A DNA stretch of 37,649 nucleotides. It comes from Myxococcales bacterium. Lineage in GTDB: Bacteria; Myxococcota_A; Polyangia; Polyangiales; Houyiibacteriaceae. The stretch covers positions 1 through 37,649 of the forward strand of contig JAHBWH010000070.1 in NCBI GenBank assembly GCA_019637115.1, given 5' to 3'. Position numbers and translations under genes: made by a program. The notes under the pieces were generated by a model. It did not search any database. It had not been told where the DNA came from and worked only from the letters and a program-made list of their open reading frames with translations. Below, in pieces: positions 12,432 through 18,728 of the stretch. Numbering within the stretch: the stretch's first letter is position 1; the number at the start of each line of letters is the position of its first letter.

Positions 12432-14360
12432 TCAGTCCGGGCCGGGGCACGACTCCTCGAGCCCGACGCGGCGGACGCGGGGGGCCCCGAGGGGGCCGTC
12501 GACCTCGAGCGTGAGCCGCACCTCGACGAGGCCGCCGCGGGGCAGGTCGAGGGTCATCGGCGAGGGGTCGTCGGGGCGGACGCCGACGCGCACGAAGGGC
12601 GCGTCGGCGAGCTCGACCTCGGTCGGCGCGTGCCGCGCGTCGACGATCACGCGCCCGAAGGGGCTGACGTCGGCGGTGACGTGCAGGCGCTGCCAGACCG
12701 TGTCCGGCGAGACGCGCGCGTCACCGGTCGCGCAGCCGCGGAAGACGTAGGAGGCGCTGCCGGACGGGACGAAGCGCTCCGCGCGCTTGGCGCCGGTGAG
12801 ATCCCCTTGGGTGTGCGGGCCGACGCCGACCGACACCTGCGCGCCCACGGCGCCGGTGGCGGGATCGAGCCGCGTGGCGACGCCGCGCCCTCCGGCCGCG
12901 CCGCTCGTGGACGCGACCCAGACGTGCCCGAACGCGTCGAGGCCGATCCCGATCGCCTCGCGCGGGACGACGCCGAGGCCCGCGAGCTCCCACGTCGCCT
13001 CGACGCTCAGCGGGGCGACGCGGAGCTGCGAGACGCGGCCGTCGGTGTGCGCCACGAACGCGAGCTCGCGCGCGTCGTCGACGACCGCACCTCGGACGCT
13101 GGGCGGCGTCCCGAGCGTCGACCAGCGCTCGGTCGCCGGATCGAAGGTGCTCACGCGATCGCAGCCGAAGCCCGTGACGAAGATCCGACCCTCGCGGTCG
13201 AGGTCGAGGCCGTAGAGGAGGTAGCAGGGGAGGGGGACTTCGCGGACGTTCACCGTCGGCGTCGCGCCGCCGACGCCCTCGACGCTGAGCAGGTAGCCGT
13301 CGCGAGAGATCATCCAGAGCGTGCCCCACGGATCGAAGCCCGCCGCGTAGGGCTCGAAGCCGGGCGTCTCGATCCGCTCGCGCTCGAGCCCCGTCTCCCC
13401 ATCGAGCCGGACGACGGCGCCCTCGTCGTGCAGGCCCACCCAGACGTCGCCGCCTCCTCCCCCATCGGGGCCGACGTGGCCGTCGACCGCGAGCGCCCGC
13501 GGCACGCCCGCGCGTCCGCCGACCTCCCGCGTGAAGAGTACGCACTCGTCACCCGCGACGGGCGTCGAGCCCGTGGAGGTGTCGAGCCCGTCGCCGTCGC
13601 GATCGACGCAGCGGGCGGGATCGCTCGCGATCTTCGTCACCGAGCCGACGCCGTCGAAGGCGCGGTTGGCGATCCACGCGTCACCTCGCCAATCGACCGC
13701 GACGCGGCTCGGCTCCGCGCCCCCCGAGAAGTACCGGGCCACCTCGCGCGCCGACGCGGCGTCGAGGCGTGAGACCGTGTCCTCGGCGCCGTTCGCGATC
13801 CAGACGTCGCCCACGACCACCGGTTCGCGCCGGAGCGTCAGCGCGCCCTGCGACGTCACCTCGAGCGCGTCCGTCGGCGCGAAGGGCGCGGCCCCCTCGC
13901 CCCAGACCTCGCCGCCGCAGCCGGCCATGCAGCCACCGCACGGGCTCAGGGTGCCTTCATCGACGCGCCCGTCGCAGTCGTCGTCTACCCCGCTGCAGAG
14001 CTCGGGCCGCGGGACGATGGCGCCCTGGCAGAGGCCGCGGTGCCCGTGGATGCAGAGCGAGCGCCCCGCGCGGCACGGGCCCACGTCCCGCGTGTCGGCG
14101 GGGCCGGGGTAACACTCTGCGACCCCGGGCAGGCAGGGGCAGCCCGTCGCGAAGGGGGTGGCCTCGCAATCGGGCGGCGGCACGAGGTCGCAGTTCACGT
14201 GACGCAGCGGGTTCGTGTCGTCGCAGTCGGGGCCCGCGGGGCAACCCTCGCCATAGCCGTCGAGGTCGAGGTCGACACAGCCCCCCTCCCGGCTGCCGCA
14301 CGCGGGCAGCAGCGAGGCCGAGAGCACGACGCACGCGCCGAGGATGCCGAGCGGACGCAC
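12432..14360 (-). CDS. MopE-like metal-binding, beta-propeller lipoprotein
   Basis: 642 aa. Signal peptide MRPLGILGACVVLSASLLPAC ends in a lipobox Cys at 21. Residues about 25-55 (DLDLDGYGEGC; GPDCDDTNP) and about 120-135 (CSGVDDDCDGRVDEG) match the Asp/Cys-rich putative metal-binding repeats of MopE-type proteins common in myxobacteria. Residues about 180-540 hold repeated GDVWIANGAEDTVSRLDA-type blades (DAWIANRAFDGV; GDVWVGLHDEGAVVRLD; GHVWVASTSG), an NHL/Vgb-like beta-propeller. The last about 90 residues are another beta domain. GTG 14360 is the start. It is surface-anchored by prediction; ligand unknown. It may be the last gene of the operon starting at 15568. Confidence 0.8.
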   Translation of the reverse strand: MRPLGILGACVVLSASLLPACGSREGGCVDLDLDGYGEGCPAGPDCDDTNPLRHVNCDLVPPPDCEATPFATGCPCLPGVAECYPGPADTRDVGPCRAGRSLCIHGHRGLCQGAIVPRPELCSGVDDDCDGRVDEGTLSPCGGCMAGCGGEVWGEGAAPFAPTDALEVTSQGALTLRREPVVVGDVWIANGAEDTVSRLDAASAREVARYFSGGAEPSRVAVDWRGDAWIANRAFDGVGSVTKIASDPARCVDRDGDGLDTSTGSTPVAGDECVLFTREVGGRAGVPRALAVDGHVGPDGGGGGDVWVGLHDEGAVVRLDGETGLERERIETPGFEPYAAGFDPWGTLWMISRDGYLLSVEGVGGATPTVNVREVPLPCYLLYGLDLDREGRIFVTGFGCDRVSTFDPATERWSTLGTPPSVRGAVVDDARELAFVAHTDGRVSQLRVAPLSVEATWELAGLGVVPREAIGIGLDAFGHVWVASTSGAAGGRGVATRLDPATGAVGAQVSVGVGPHTQGDLTGAKRAERFVPSGSASYVFRGCATGDARVSPDTVWQRLHVTADVSPFGRVIVDARHAPTEVELADAPFVRVGVRPDDPSPMTLDLPRGGLVEVRLTLEVDGPLGAPRVRRVGLEESCPGPD

Positions 14361-14415: not shown

Positions 14416-14922
14416 TCAGCGCGGCTCGCGGGAGAGCAGCGCCTCGAGCTGCGGCCCGTGCCGGCCGGCGAGTGAGAGCACCACCCGCACGAGGTTGCGG
14501 AAGGCACGTCGGTCGAAGCTCGAGTCCGTGTGCAGTACGGCGCTGAGGCGCACCTCGCCGTCGCTCGGGTTCCACTCGAGCTTGGTGGTGAGCATCGACC
14601 AGTTCAGCTCCGCGATGCGCCGGAGGACGGCCGGGGTGGCGGGGTCCTCGGGGGGCGCGACGACGAGGCGCGGCACCCAGACGTAGACCGTGTCGCTCTC
14701 GTCGCTGTAGAGCGTGAACGCGCGCAATTCGTGGCGTGCGTCGGGGCTGACGTGGCGGAGCTCGCACCGGGCGCGGATGGCGCTCTCCGGCTCGCAGAGG
14801 GGCGCGAGGCCCATGGCGTCGAGCTCCTCGCGCATGGCCGCGAGGTAGCGAGGCTCGGGGGCCTGCGCGGTGGCCGCGGGGAGCGCGGCGAGGAGGAGCA
14901 GCAGCGAGAAGGTGACGCGCAC
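14416..14922 (-). CDS. secreted YbjN-like protein
   Basis: 168 aa. GTG 14922 opens a signal peptide ([21 protein letters not shown], cleavage near residue 19-20) with no lipobox, so it is probably periplasmic. The mature part, especially [28 protein letters not shown] and the closing [12 protein letters not shown] helix, resembles the YbjN/type III secretion chaperone-like fold, in which such domains mediate protein-protein contacts. Finding that fold behind a signal peptide is notable. It starts 7 bp after the stop of the signal-peptidase-like gene, so the two are surely co-transcribed. The domain call is by eye and moderate; partner unknown. Confidence 0.68.
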
Positions 14923-14929
14923 GACAGGC

Positions 14930-15568
14930 TCAGGGGTCGAGGAAGTCGAGCCATCCGTGGCCGAGGTCGGCGCTGCGGGTCTCGGCGGGGCTGAAGCGCA
15001 TGAAGAGCCGGCCGAGGCAGTGGTCGAGCGGCACGGTGCCGAAGCTCCGGCTGTCGAGCTCGGCGGCGGCGCGGTTGTCGGCCATCAGGAAGACGCGCCC
15101 CGGCTCGACCGTCGTGTCCCGCATCCGCAGCGTGTAGCGCTCGCGCTCGAACGCCCAGTGGCTCGTGTTGCCGAGCTTCTCGAGCACGCGCGCGTAGCTC
15201 GCCTCGCGGTTGATGGTGTGGTCGTAGAAGCGGACCTCGCCCTGAATGTCGCGGTCGGGGCGCGTGCCCGAGACCTCGAGCTGGCCCCGGACCTCCTTGA
15301 GCGTCATCCCCGCCTTGCCGACCACGCGGCCCATGACCATCTGGCCCTGGTTCACCGGGTGTCGGCACACGAGGATCTGGCCCATCTCGGGGTCGCTGAC
15401 GCCCCGCCACATCAGCACGCGCTCACCTGCGATCATGGTCGGCGCCATTCCGTCGTGCCCGACCTCGACGACGTCGACGAAGAAGAGCCGGAAGACGCCG
15501 GCGATGACGAGCAAGATCCCGCCGATCCACAACGTGGCCTTGAAGGCGATCCGCCAGAACGCGCGCAC
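14930..15568 (-). CDS. S26 signal-peptidase-like protein lacking catalytic Ser and Lys
   Basis: 212 aa. One N-terminal membrane helix (about residues 10-31) is followed by a periplasmic domain that keeps S26 box order. Box B reads GHDGMAPTM where active enzymes have (S/P)SGSM.PT, so the nucleophile Ser is Gly40. Box D reads [11 protein letters not shown] where active enzymes have KRVVGxPG, so the general-base Lys is Gly80. Box [15 protein letters not shown] (about 164-177) and VPLDHCLGR are well kept. The codons for both glycines were read directly. It is probably a catalytically dead relative of LepB. GTG 15568 is the start. It heads a minus-strand operon and diverges from thiG. Confidence 0.8.
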
Positions 15569-15611
15569 GCCCCTTCGTCGCGCGCCCCCGATCGGGTGTC
15601 AAGCGGGAACA

Positions 15612-15628
15612 CCGGGGGGAAACCCCGG
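15612..15628 (+). promoter_or_regulatory. strong hairpin in the thiG / signal-peptidase-like divergent gap
   Basis: CCGGGG-GGAAA-CCCCGG is a perfect 6-bp stem 58 bp upstream of the thiG start. I looked for the conserved TPP-riboswitch segments (CUGAGA; ACCUGAU...) in the 117-bp gap and did not see them. The hairpin may be an unrelated leader structure. Confidence 0.35.
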
Positions 15629-15685
15629 CGCGGGCCCCCCTCCGGTGGCTCGAACCTACGGGTGGGTGTGCTAGTCCGGGGCCCG

Positions 15686-16471
15686 ATGAGTGACGACCTC
15701 CTCCGCATCGGTGAGCACACCTTCCGCTCTCGGCTCTTCACCGGCACCGGCAAGTACCCGAGCCTCGACGTGATGCGTCAGGCGCTCGCGGCGTCGGGCA
15801 GCGAGGTCGTGACCGTCGCGGTGCGCCGCGTGAACCTCGACGAGCGCGGCGAGGGCTCGGTCTTCGACGTGATGGCCCAGGCGGGCTGCACCGTCCTGCC
15901 GAACACGGCGGGCTGCTACACCGCCAAGGACGCGGTCCGGACGGCGCGGCTCGCCCGCGAGATGCTCGGCACGAACCTCGTCAAGCTCGAGGTCATCGGC
16001 GACGAGCGCACGCTCTTTCCGGACGTCGCGGCGACCCTCGAGTCGGCCAAGCTGCTCGTCGAGGACGGCTTCACCGTCTTGCCCTACGTCACAGACGACC
16101 CCGTCGCGTGCAAGCGCCTCGAGGACCTCGGCTGCGCGGCCGTGATGCCGCTCGCGGCGCCCATCGGCAGCGGCCTCGGCGTCCGCAACCCCTACAACCT
16201 CGAGATCATCGTGGCGCACGCGAACGTGCCGGTGATCGTGGACGCCGGGGTCGGCACCGCGAGCGACGCTGCCTTCGCGATGGAGCTCGGCGTCGACGCG
16301 CTGCTCATGAACACCGCGATCGCGAGCGCCGCCGACCCGGTGGCGATGGCGCGCGCGATGAAGCTCGCCGTCGAGGCGGGCCGGCTCGCGTCTCGCGCCG
16401 GCCGCATCCCGCGCAAGCTCTACGCGACCGCCTCGAGCCCGCTCGAGGGGGTCATCGGCAGCCAGCAGTGA
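15686..16471 (+). CDS. thiG: thiazole synthase ThiG
   Basis: 261-aa TIM-barrel enzyme that builds the thiazole phosphate moiety of thiamine from deoxyxylulose 5-phosphate, dehydroglycine and ThiS thiocarboxylate. [31 protein letters not shown], Schiff-base Lys100 in [26 protein letters not shown] and [12 protein letters not shown] are all present. The start is ATG 15686 with a weak GGGGC upstream. The next gene overlaps its stop by four bases (GTGA). The sulfur carrier gene thiS lies 4.2 kb downstream instead of adjacent. Confidence 0.95.
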
Positions 16472-16839
16472 GCGGGCCGCTCGCGACCGTCGTCCTCGTC
16501 CTCGCGCTCGCGCGCGCGCCCTTCCAGTGCGCGAGCGACCCCGACCCGAACCGGCGCCGCGAGGACACCCCGTCCGAGGCGCTCTGGGAGCTCGCGGAGC
16601 GCTTCCACGAGCGCGGCGACGACGACGCGCGGCGGGTCACGCTCGAGGCGCTCGTCGAGCGCTACCCGACCTCGCGCGAGGCGGAGCGCGCGCGCCTCGC
16701 GCTCGGCGGGCGGGAGGCAGACGACGAGGCCGCGTCCGAGGCGTCCGAGGCGTCCGAGGCGCCTCGGCCCGAGCGAGAGACCGAGCCCGAGGCGCCCACG
16801 CGCCAGCCGCTCGCGCCGGAGACGCCCGAGGGCTCGTGA
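16468..16839 (+). CDS. small TPR-like protein between thiG and thiE
   Basis: 123 aa. GTG 16468 overlaps the thiG stop, and its own stop overlaps the thiE start, so it is translationally coupled on both sides. Residues 1-16 are hydrophobic and a Cys follows in APFQCASD, suggesting export; the lipobox is not canonical. Residues about 35-78 ([42 protein letters not shown]) form one or two TPR-like helical hairpins like those of outer-membrane assembly lipoproteins. The tail is Glu/Ala/Ser/Pro-rich and includes three 9-bp units (GCGTCCGAG, 16732-16758). Role in thiamine synthesis is not evident. Confidence 0.68.
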
Positions 16840-17462
16840 GCGCGAGGCTCGTGAGCGGGAGGTCTCCGCGGTTGCTCTGGATCACGCCCGCCGAAGGCTC
16901 GCTCGCGGCGATGCGGCAGGCGCTGGAGCGCGAGCTCCTCGCCCTGGGAGACGACAAGGACACGCGCGAGCTCGTCGTGCTGCTTCGCCGCCCCGCCGCG
17001 AGCACACGCGGGCTCCTCGAGGAGGGGAGGGCGCTCTCGGCCACGGGCGCGCCGCTCCTCGTCAGCCGCCGCGTCGACGTCGCGCTGGCGCTCGGGGCGC
17101 TCGGCGTGCACCTGCCCGAGCGCGGCGTGTCTGTGGGCGACGCGCGCGCGCTCCTCGGTCCGGCCAAATGGATCGGCGTGTCTCGGCACGACCGCGCGGG
17201 CCTCACGGCCGCCGCGGCGGAGGGCGCCGACTACGCGACCCTCTCGCCCTTCGCGGCGACGCCTGGCAAGGGCACGCCGCTCGGGGCGGCCGCGTTCGCG
17301 CGAGCGCGCGCCGGGATCGCGATGCCCGTGCTGGCGCTCGGCGGGATCGACGCCGCCGTGGGCCGAGAGGCGCTCGCAGCAGGCGCCGACGGCCTCGCGT
17401 TCATCCGCGCCGGCGCGGAGCTCGCGGCGCTGCGCGCGCTCCTCCAGCCGAAGCGTGCGTAG
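16836..17462 (+). CDS. thiE: thiamine phosphate synthase / TenI-like protein
   Basis: 208 aa, ThiE/TenI TIM-barrel family. ThiE joins hydroxymethylpyrimidine diphosphate to thiazole phosphate. VHLPERGVSVGDAR, KWIGVSRHD, EGADYATLSPFAATPGKGTPLG and PVLALGGIDA follow the family order. The usual N-terminal QLRxK pyrimidine-diphosphate motif appears as LLRRPAAS, so a TenI-type (thiazole tautomerase) role cannot be excluded. Coupling to thiG supports a thiamine role either way. GTG 16836 overlaps the previous stop; GTG 16851 is an alternative. Confidence 0.8.
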   Translation: MSARLVSGRSPRLLWITPAEGSLAAMRQALERELLALGDDKDTRELVVLLRRPAASTRGLLEEGRALSATGAPLLVSRRVDVALALGALGVHLPERGVSVGDARALLGPAKWIGVSRHDRAGLTAAAAEGADYATLSPFAATPGKGTPLGAAAFARARAGIAMPVLALGGIDAAVGREALAAGADGLAFIRAGAELAALRALLQPKRA

Positions 17463-17515: not shown

Positions 17516-17740
17516 CATCACGAGCGAGCGGCGCCGTGTGGACGCTGCGGCGCGCCTCCTGCGTGCCGGTCGCAGCTCAGTGCATGACGAGCGCGCGGCG
17601 CGACGCGGGGCCTCCGACGTGCGGGCGCAGCAGAGCATCACGAGCGCGCGGCGCGACGCGGGCCGGGCCCGCCTAGCGCGGGCCCTGCTGCGTGCGGGAC
17701 GCCGCAGCTCAGAGCATCACGAGCGCGTTGCGGGGACGTC
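17516..17740. repeat. four degenerate direct repeats including the ftsZ-like 3' end
   Basis: CATCACGAGCG-type cores occur at 17516, 17583 (CATGACGAGCG), 17636 and 17715. Each is followed by a similar GCGGCGCGACGCGG stretch, and most are preceded by a (TCG/CCG)CAGCTCAG-like string. The last copy lies in the 3' end of the ftsZ-like gene and codes its final Ala-Leu-Val-Met-Leu. Spacing is 67, 53 and 79 bp. They look like decayed tandem duplications of the gene's end, filling the gap to thiE. Confidence 0.65.
17665..17685. terminator. 8-bp stem hairpin between thiE and the ftsZ-like gene
   Basis: GGGCCCGC-CTAGC-GCGGGCCC is a perfect 8-bp stem with a 5-nt loop in the gap between the convergent thiE and ftsZ-like genes. 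It lies 24 bp past the ftsZ-like stop on the minus strand. It is probably a bidirectional terminator without a U-tract. Confidence 0.55.
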
Positions 17741-18728
17741 GCACGCCGCTCGCGGCGACCGGAGGACGGACCTCCGCTTCGGGCGCGAAGCGCGTCGCCA
17801 CGACGGTGGCCCGCACGCGGCCGACCATCGTTGGATCCGTCACGACACCGAACGAGACGTCGGCGTCGGGGTGCGCCGCGCGCTCGAGGAGCTGCGCGGC
17901 CGCCTCGATCTCGCGGAGCTTCAGGTCCGGGCCCGCCGTCAGGTTCAGCAGCCACGCGCGCGCGCCGTCGATGGCGTCGCTGCTGAGCAGCGGGCTCTGC
18001 ACCGCGCGCGCGACCGCGAGGTCTGCGCCGCCTTCTCGAGCGGTACACTCGCCGAGGCCGAGCACCGCCCGGCCCCCGCCGGTGAGCGTCGAGCGGAGGT
18101 CGGCGAGGTCGAGGTTCACGAGGCCCGGCCGCGTGACGAGCTCGGCGATGCCGCGCACGCCGTCCGAGAGCACCCGGTCGGCTCGCCGGAACGCGTCGCT
18201 GAGCTCCAGGTCCGCGCCGTCACCCTCGAGCAGGCGATCGTTGGCGATGACGAGGAGGGCGTCCACGCGCGGGGTGAGCGCGGCGAGCCCCTGCGCGGCG
18301 AGCTGCGCGCGCTTGCGGCCCTCGAAGCGGAAGGGCGTGGTCACGACGCCGACGGTGAGGGCGCCGCGCTCGCGCGCGACCTCCGCGACCACGGGGGCGG
18401 CGCCGGTCCCCGTGCCGCCGCCCATGCCGGCCGTGACGAAGACCAGGTCCGCGTCCGTCAGCACACGGTGCAGCTCTCGGCTCGACGCCTCCGCGGCCTC
18501 CGCCCCGACGCTCGGGCGCCCGCCGGCGCCGAGCCCTCGCGTCAGCGACTCGCCGAGCCGGACCGTCTGCGCCCCCGTCGCGCCCCCGACGTGGGCGAGC
18601 GCTTGCGCGTCGGTGTTGGCCGCGACGAGCCCGACGCCCGCGACCTCGCTCTGGGCCATCGCGACGAGCGCGTTGCCGCCCGCGCCGCCCACGCCGACCA
18701 CCGCCAATCGTGCCTCGAACCGTTTCAC
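17709..18728 (-). CDS. FtsZ-family tubulin-like GTPase, no C-terminal peptide
   Basis: 339 aa. FtsZ polymerises with GTP to form the division ring. The nucleotide-binding start VVGVGGAGGNA, tubulin signature GMGGGTGTGAAP (about 101-112) and synergy-loop NLDLADLR (N205, D207, D210) are intact, so GTP hydrolysis at the dimer interface is expected. The body ends at VRATVVATRF. Only about 24 residues follow, ending RPRNALVML, with no long linker and no conserved (D/E)xPxFLR-type peptide for FtsA or other anchors. It stands alone between thiE and a permease, away from any division cluster. It could be a second FtsZ with a specialised role. GTG 18728 is the start. Confidence 0.87.
   Translation of the reverse strand: MKRFEARLAVVGVGGAGGNALVAMAQSEVAGVGLVAANTDAQALAHVGGATGAQTVRLGESLTRGLGAGGRPSVGAEAAEASSRELHRVLTDADLVFVTAGMGGGTGTGAAPVVAEVARERGALTVGVVTTPFRFEGRKRAQLAAQGLAALTPRVDALLVIANDRLLEGDGADLELSDAFRRADRVLSDGVRGIAELVTRPGLVNLDLADLRSTLTGGGRAVLGLGECTAREGGADLAVARAVQSPLLSSDAIDGARAWLLNLTAGPDLKLREIEAAAQLLERAAHPDADVSFGVVTDPTMVGRVRATVVATRFAPEAEVRPPVAASGVRRPRNALVML

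What the first reader, a model, noticed from the sequence alone, without database searches (positions are those of the whole stretch)
14930..15568. Signal-peptidase fold with both catalytic residues replaced by glycine
The sequence keeps the S26 membrane anchor, box B context (GMAPTM), box D context (RVVGKAG) and the DNR...DSRSFG box E. The nucleophile Ser is Gly40 and the general-base Lys is Gly80; I read both codons directly (GGA, GGC). Loss of both with the scaffold kept suggests selection for a non-catalytic role, such as binding signal peptides, regulating an active LepB, or acting as an assembly factor. Such pseudo-signal-peptidases are little described in bacteria as far as I know.
Basis: partly seen in the sequence, partly recalled or inferred. 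Interest (0 to 1): 0.72.

Follow-up and report, generated by a model that had tools for sequence, protein, structure and literature searches.

The report
Conserved catalytically dead signal peptidase
In a large group of myxobacteria-like bacteria, a second copy of the enzyme that trims exported proteins has lost its cutting residues but is still kept, usually beside a gene for a small exported chaperone-like protein; it probably now grips exported peptides instead of cutting them, a trick known before only from some Gram-positive bacteria.

Summary
The gene lies on the minus strand (14930-15568): Gly40 (GGA) and Gly80 (GGC) replace the Ser and Lys of type I signal peptidase. It is not an error or isolated decay. 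33 of 34 genomes of the same family carry an orthologue. In 83 aligned relatives from the class, Lys is never present at position 80. Position 40 is Gly or Ala in the window's subclade (45 of 48), but Ser is kept in two sister lineages. No other Lys or His is invariant. The gene is under purifying selection, forms its own clade beside intact LepB, and carries two clade-specific invariant cysteines. AlphaFold gives a confident LepB fold; SipA of Streptococcus pyogenes, a known dead signal peptidase needed for pilus assembly, is among the nearest solved structures. New here: the gene belongs to a conserved thiS-thiG-thiE-pseudoLepB-YbjN operon, and the pseudoLepB/YbjN pair also occurs in another order without thi genes. 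The YbjN-like partner has a predicted export signal and a type III secretion chaperone fold. Best reading: a membrane-anchored, non-cutting peptide-binding protein working with a chaperone-like partner. Catalytic loss is strongly supported; the role is inferred. New variant of a known kind.

The parts
14930..15568 (-). pseudo-signal-peptidase (S26/LepB homologue without the Ser/Lys dyad), 212 aa, GTG start
15482..15565 (-). N-terminal membrane anchor helix (residues 2-29)
   Evidence: secondary structure of the model
15449..15451 (-). codon 40, GGA (Gly) in place of the nucleophile Ser (E. coli Ser90)
   Evidence: alignment
15329..15331 (-). codon 80, GGC (Gly) in place of the general-base Lys (E. 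coli Lys145)
   Evidence: alignment
15365..15367 (-). codon 68, Cys, invariant in the clade and absent from canonical LepB
   Evidence: 83 of 83
15017..15019 (-). codon 184, Cys, invariant in the clade; possible disulphide partner of Cys68 (not measured)
   Evidence: 83 of 83
14416..14922 (-). YbjN/CesT-like protein with a signal-peptide-like N-terminus, next gene downstream (about 7-10 nt gap); conserved partner
   Evidence: Pfam YbjN 7.4e-05, CesT 4e-06 for an orthologue; fold; adjacency
15686..16471 (+). thiG, divergent from the pseudo-signal-peptidase here; upstream on the same strand in most relatives
   Evidence: Pfam ThiG 1.3e-113
16839..17462 (+). thiE; in relatives it lies directly before the pseudo-signal-peptidase
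   Evidence: Pfam TMP-TENI 2.1e-30

Best explanation
A vertically inherited, non-catalytic paralogue of type I signal peptidase (a pseudo-LepB). One N-terminal helix anchors it in the inner membrane with the LepB-fold domain in the periplasm. The catalytic Lys is missing in the whole clade, so it was most likely lost at its base, and in this branch the Ser became Gly or Ala. The hydrophobic cleft that holds signal-peptide c-regions is largely kept, so the protein most likely binds the signal peptide or another extended segment of exported proteins without cutting, and hands it to, or shields it together with, the chaperone-like YbjN protein encoded next to it. Shown computationally: fold, loss of the dyad, conservation, selection, separate clade, intact LepB in the same genome, conserved gene pair. 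Inferred: periplasmic topology, peptide binding, physical contact with the YbjN protein, the role in export, and a Cys68-Cys184 disulphide.
For: LepB fold at pLDDT 90; best solved matches E. coli LepB (VIA Z 21.3, 179 aligned, 2.6 A) and SipA 4n31 (Z 16.3). 33 of 34 family genomes carry it. Lys absent in 83 of 83; position 80 is Gly 69, Ala 10, Leu 4. Position 40 is G or A in 45 of 48 of the subclade. The Gly272 column, which must be Gly where Lys145 is present (PMC4049620), is Ser, Ala or Asn in 36 of 83 but Gly in 30 of 30 canonical paralogues. Seven of eight cleft positions compared are at least 86% hydrophobic and the eighth 80%, against a 40% column mean (the list of cleft positions is from memory). 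dN/dS 0.08-0.48. Tree: the clade is separate from canonical LepB (69 rows, SH-aLRT 86), the window's subclade 99. YbjN partner within about 250 bp in 28 of 33 genomes that have both, in two orders. Partner fold like type III secretion chaperones.
Against: No binding or activity data exist for this protein. The pair is not obligate: genus g11 and others have the pseudo-LepB without YbjN, and families f3 and part of f6 have YbjN without it. The Polyangiaceae-like lineage (f10) has other neighbours. Linkage to thi genes may be only operon inertia. For SipA, pull-downs with the unprocessed major pilin failed to show an interaction in vitro.
Confidence: 0.6

Rival explanations
1. It is a non-catalytic partner or regulator of the active LepB, for example a decoy that occupies LepB's substrates or a subunit that changes its specificity.
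For: Intact LepB is found in 31 of 34 family genomes by profile score, and 30 of 30 checked have the full dyad. Pseudoenzymes often regulate active paralogues (general knowledge). The cleft is largely kept.
Against: No linkage to lepB seen in the loci studied; the conserved neighbours are thi genes and YbjN. No interaction evidence.
Confidence: 0.18
2. It has a different catalytic activity with relocated residues, for example Cys68 or His38 chemistry, or Ser40 with an unusual base in the f10 and f26 lineages.
For: Cys68 and Cys184 are invariant (83 of 83); Ser is kept in 19 of 19 f10 and 10 of 12 f26 members; His38 is 88% in the subclade.
Against: No Lys column of the exported domain exceeds 40% in the clade or in the window's subclade, and no His is invariant. 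Asp164, Asp172, Ser173 and the Arg residues belong to the box E motif shared with active S26 proteins. His38 is absent from the sister lineages, and Ser40 from the window's branch.
Confidence: 0.08
3. It assembles a surface structure such as a pilus, as SipA does in streptococci.
For: SipA is the closest solved non-catalytic relative and carries the same kind of change, Asp48 and Gly85.
Against: No pilin, sortase or pilus gene was seen among the conserved neighbours; sortase pili belong to Gram-positives (general knowledge).
Confidence: 0.08
4. It is a decaying relic without function.
For: Both catalytic residues are gone, and dN/dS of the window pair is fairly high (0.48).
Against: Kept in nearly all genomes of a family and across the class, full length without stops; dN/dS 0.08-0.27 in most close pairs; invariant non-catalytic residues.
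Confidence: 0.03

Closest known systems
SipA (LepA) of Streptococcus pyogenes, PDB 4n31, PMC4049620
   Same: Signal peptidase fold, Ser and Lys replaced (Asp48, Gly85), cleft kept, relaxed Gly272 position, no detectable peptidase activity
   Different: Gram-positive, within a pilus locus; the one here is chromosomal and vertically inherited in Myxococcota, next to thi genes and a YbjN-like chaperone, with two extra invariant Cys
SpsA of Staphylococcus aureus (PMC12445088)
   Different: Another lineage; no partner known from the paper read here
E. coli LepB (type I signal peptidase, S26A)
   Same: Fold (VIA Z 21.3), boxes B, D and E, membrane anchor, hydrophobic cleft
   Different: Ser90, Lys145 and Ser278 equivalents missing; two new invariant Cys; one predicted membrane helix
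YbjN family / type III secretion class I chaperones (AmyR PMC5398634; CesT, ExsC) - for the partner protein
   Same: Fold of the partner (2plg, VecA 9ux0, ExsC 3kxy as best matches); Pfam YbjN and CesT matches
   Different: The partner carries a signal-peptide-like N-terminus and two invariant Cys; type III secretion chaperones work in the cytosol (general knowledge)

Membership tests
Type I signal peptidase fold family (Peptidase S26, PF10502) | Profile match above the curated cut-off and the LepB fold | tested here: met
   70.4 bits against 22.9; VIA Z 21.3 to 1b12
Active type I signal peptidase (S26A, TIGR02227 equivalog) | Catalytic Ser in box B | tested here: not met
   Gly40; the profile still passes its cut-off at 71 against 47 bits, so automatic annotation would call it signal peptidase I
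Active type I signal peptidase (S26A, TIGR02227 equivalog) | General-base Lys in box D | tested here: not met
   Gly80; no Lys in 83 of 83 clade members
ER/archaeal type signal peptidase (S26B, Ser/His) | His in place of Lys | tested here: not met
   Position 80 is G, A or L only
Pseudo-signal-peptidase (works like SipA/SpsA) | Signal peptidase fold without Ser and Lys, beside an intact enzyme in the same genome | tested here: met
Pseudo-signal-peptidase (works like SipA/SpsA) | No peptidase activity | not testable with these tools
   needs an enzyme assay
SipA pilus assembly factor | Located in a sortase pilus gene cluster | tested here: not met
   Neighbours are thiS, thiG, thiE, YbjN, purQ/purL, murC, secD, proB (several named from their sequence)
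YbjN family (partner protein) | YbjN profile match and type III secretion chaperone fold | tested here: met
   Pfam YbjN 23.4 bits against 22; Foldseek 2plg 2.6e-05, type III secretion chaperones prob 1.00

The most novel reading that the evidence does not exclude
A previously undescribed two-protein device of Myxococcota: a membrane-anchored dead signal peptidase that captures signal peptides or unfolded exported segments, and a dedicated periplasmic chaperone of the type III secretion fold that works with it, forming an export quality-control or hand-over step separate from LepB.
Probability: 0.3. Interest if true: 0.75.

Novelty: new variant of a known kind. Interest (0 to 1): 0.5.

Why it matters
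Dead signal peptidases appear in the papers found here as Gram-positive oddities. This is an old, vertically inherited clade in a Gram-negative phylum, kept beside the active enzyme, with a conserved partner gene. It gives a testable case of a protease fold reused as a peptide-binding module in protein export. It is also a warning for annotation: the standard equivalog profile would name it signal peptidase I.

Tried and rejected
Sequencing error or isolated decay: rejected by orthologues in independent genomes. Replacement catalytic pair: no conserved Lys or invariant His. Pilus context: none among the conserved neighbours. The first neighbourhood clustering drowned in shadow ORFs of GC-rich DNA, and the second failed; replaced. 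The first protein extraction ignored strand and was redone. Cys68-Cys184 distance could not be measured because model coordinates are not exposed. Two family scans failed on a frame error of mine. Literature search for such proteins in myxobacteria found none in the held library, which lacks most subscription journals. An interaction model of the two proteins was not possible with single-chain prediction.

Full report
OBSERVATION. The ORF is on the minus strand, 15568 down to 14930, 212 aa with a GTG start. Codon 40 is GGA and codon 80 is GGC. The protein matches Peptidase_S26 with 70.4 bits and the signal peptidase I equivalog with 71 bits against a cut-off of 47, so automatic annotation would name it an active enzyme.

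CONSERVATION. A search of the 34 held genomes of the window's family finds an orthologue in 33. In the alignment none has Lys at position 80. A class-wide search and an alignment of 83 clade members give: position 80 Gly 69, Ala 10, Leu 4, never Lys or His; position 40 Gly or Ala in 45 of 48 members of the subclade that holds the window (families f1, f2, f6, f7, f8, f12), Ala in 3 of 3 of f4, Ser in 19 of 19 of f10 and 10 of 12 of f26. So Lys was most simply lost once at the base, and the Ser hydroxyl is free to drift, as expected when catalysis is gone. Three subclade members carry Ser (L009, L093, L105), again without Lys. Other phylum members hit by the same profile can be ordinary LepBs with intact Ser and Lys (L195, L196, L198). 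Only the better-scoring members of f10 were read; weaker hits there may be other S26 proteins.

SUPPORTING SIGNS OF A DEAD SITE. In LepB, Gly272 must be Gly because a side chain would clash with Lys145, and SipA relaxes it (PMC4049620). In this clade the column is Ser, Ala or Asn in 36 of 83; in the window it is Ala163. The Ser278 equivalent is not conserved. In 30 of 30 canonical paralogues checked, Ser, Lys and this Gly are all present. No Lys column of the exported domain exceeds 40% in the clade, and no His is invariant.

SELECTION AND HISTORY. Nei-Gojobori dN/dS for eleven close pairs is 0.08 to 0.48, most of them 0.08 to 0.27. These are rough values for GC-rich genes, but they show purifying selection. 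The tree puts the clade apart from canonical LepB (support 86 for 69 rows; 99 for the window's 37-row subclade), and families group largely together, so it is an old, mainly vertically inherited paralogue. Two Cys, 68 and 184, are invariant in 83 of 83 and missing together in all five other S26 rows of that alignment. They may form a disulphide; this was not measured.

STRUCTURE. AlphaFold2 with 23 rows gives mean pLDDT 90.4. Foldseek and VIA-align place E. coli LepB first (Z 21.3 over 179 residues, 2.6 A), then SipA 4n31 (Z 16.3) and SpsB. The eight positions that match the S1 and S3 pockets of LepB (pocket list from memory) are 80-100% hydrophobic in the clade, against a mean of 40%. The cleft is therefore likely to be kept.

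SURROUNDINGS. In most relatives in families f1, f6, f7 and f12 the order is thiS, thiG, often a small exported-looking ORF, thiE, pseudo-LepB, often followed by YbjN, on one strand with short gaps. In the window the thi genes are divergent (+), and pseudo-LepB with YbjN (-) is the remaining unit. The pseudo-LepB/YbjN pair also occurs in family f26, outside the order, without thi genes. Of 33 genomes with both genes (strong YbjN match), 28 have them within about 250 bp (counted by hand). It is not obligate: genus g11 lacks YbjN, and f3 has thi plus YbjN without pseudo-LepB. The f10 lineage has proB, a trypsin-like protease and an FHA protein instead. The YbjN protein starts with a signal-peptide-like sequence, has two invariant Cys, and its model (pLDDT 92) matches YbjN-like and type III secretion chaperone structures. 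YbjN proteins are thought to act by protein-protein contact without enzymatic action (PMC5398634), and the superfamily is described as peptide-binding chaperones (PMC9503650).

MECHANISM. Most likely a membrane-anchored peptide-binding pseudoprotease in the periplasm that holds signal peptides or other extended parts of exported proteins, with the YbjN protein as chaperone partner. Fold, loss of dyad, conservation and gene pairing are shown by computation; topology, binding, contact and purpose are inferred. Rivals are a regulator of the intact LepB, a new chemistry, a surface-assembly factor like SipA, and decay; only decay is close to excluded.

COMPARISON AND NOVELTY. Dead signal peptidases are known: SipA in streptococci and SpsA in Staphylococcus aureus. 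The papers found here did not describe one in Myxococcota (the library is incomplete). New are the Gram-negative, class-wide, vertical distribution, the apparent stepwise loss, the extra Cys pair and the operon with a YbjN-type chaperone that is predicted to be exported. Hence a new variant of a known kind.

Noticed in passing
L197 (G518), L143 (G060), L146 (G059): Other S26 proteins in the phylum with Gly or Asp at the Ser position and Arg at the Lys position, outside the clade described here: probably independent losses of the dyad.
   Followed up: partly
window 17709-18728 (-): An FtsZ/tubulin-family protein (Pfam Tubulin 3.5e-42, FtsZ_C 7.5e-21) of 339 aa near the thi genes; whether it is the main FtsZ or an extra copy was not checked.
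   Followed up: no
window 14870-16471 (+): The thiG frame stays open far upstream and fully overlaps the pseudo-signal-peptidase on the other strand, a trap for gene callers in GC-rich DNA; the real thiG start is near 15686.
   Followed up: yes
window 12432-14360 (-): A secreted or lipoprotein-like protein with a MopE-type metal-binding repeat and a beta-propeller region (weak Pfam matches) downstream of the YbjN gene.
   Followed up: no
L009 (G033): Ser is present at position 40 (YDSMAPT) while Lys is still missing; its nearest relative L008 has Gly, so Ser either returned or was kept here.
   Followed up: partly
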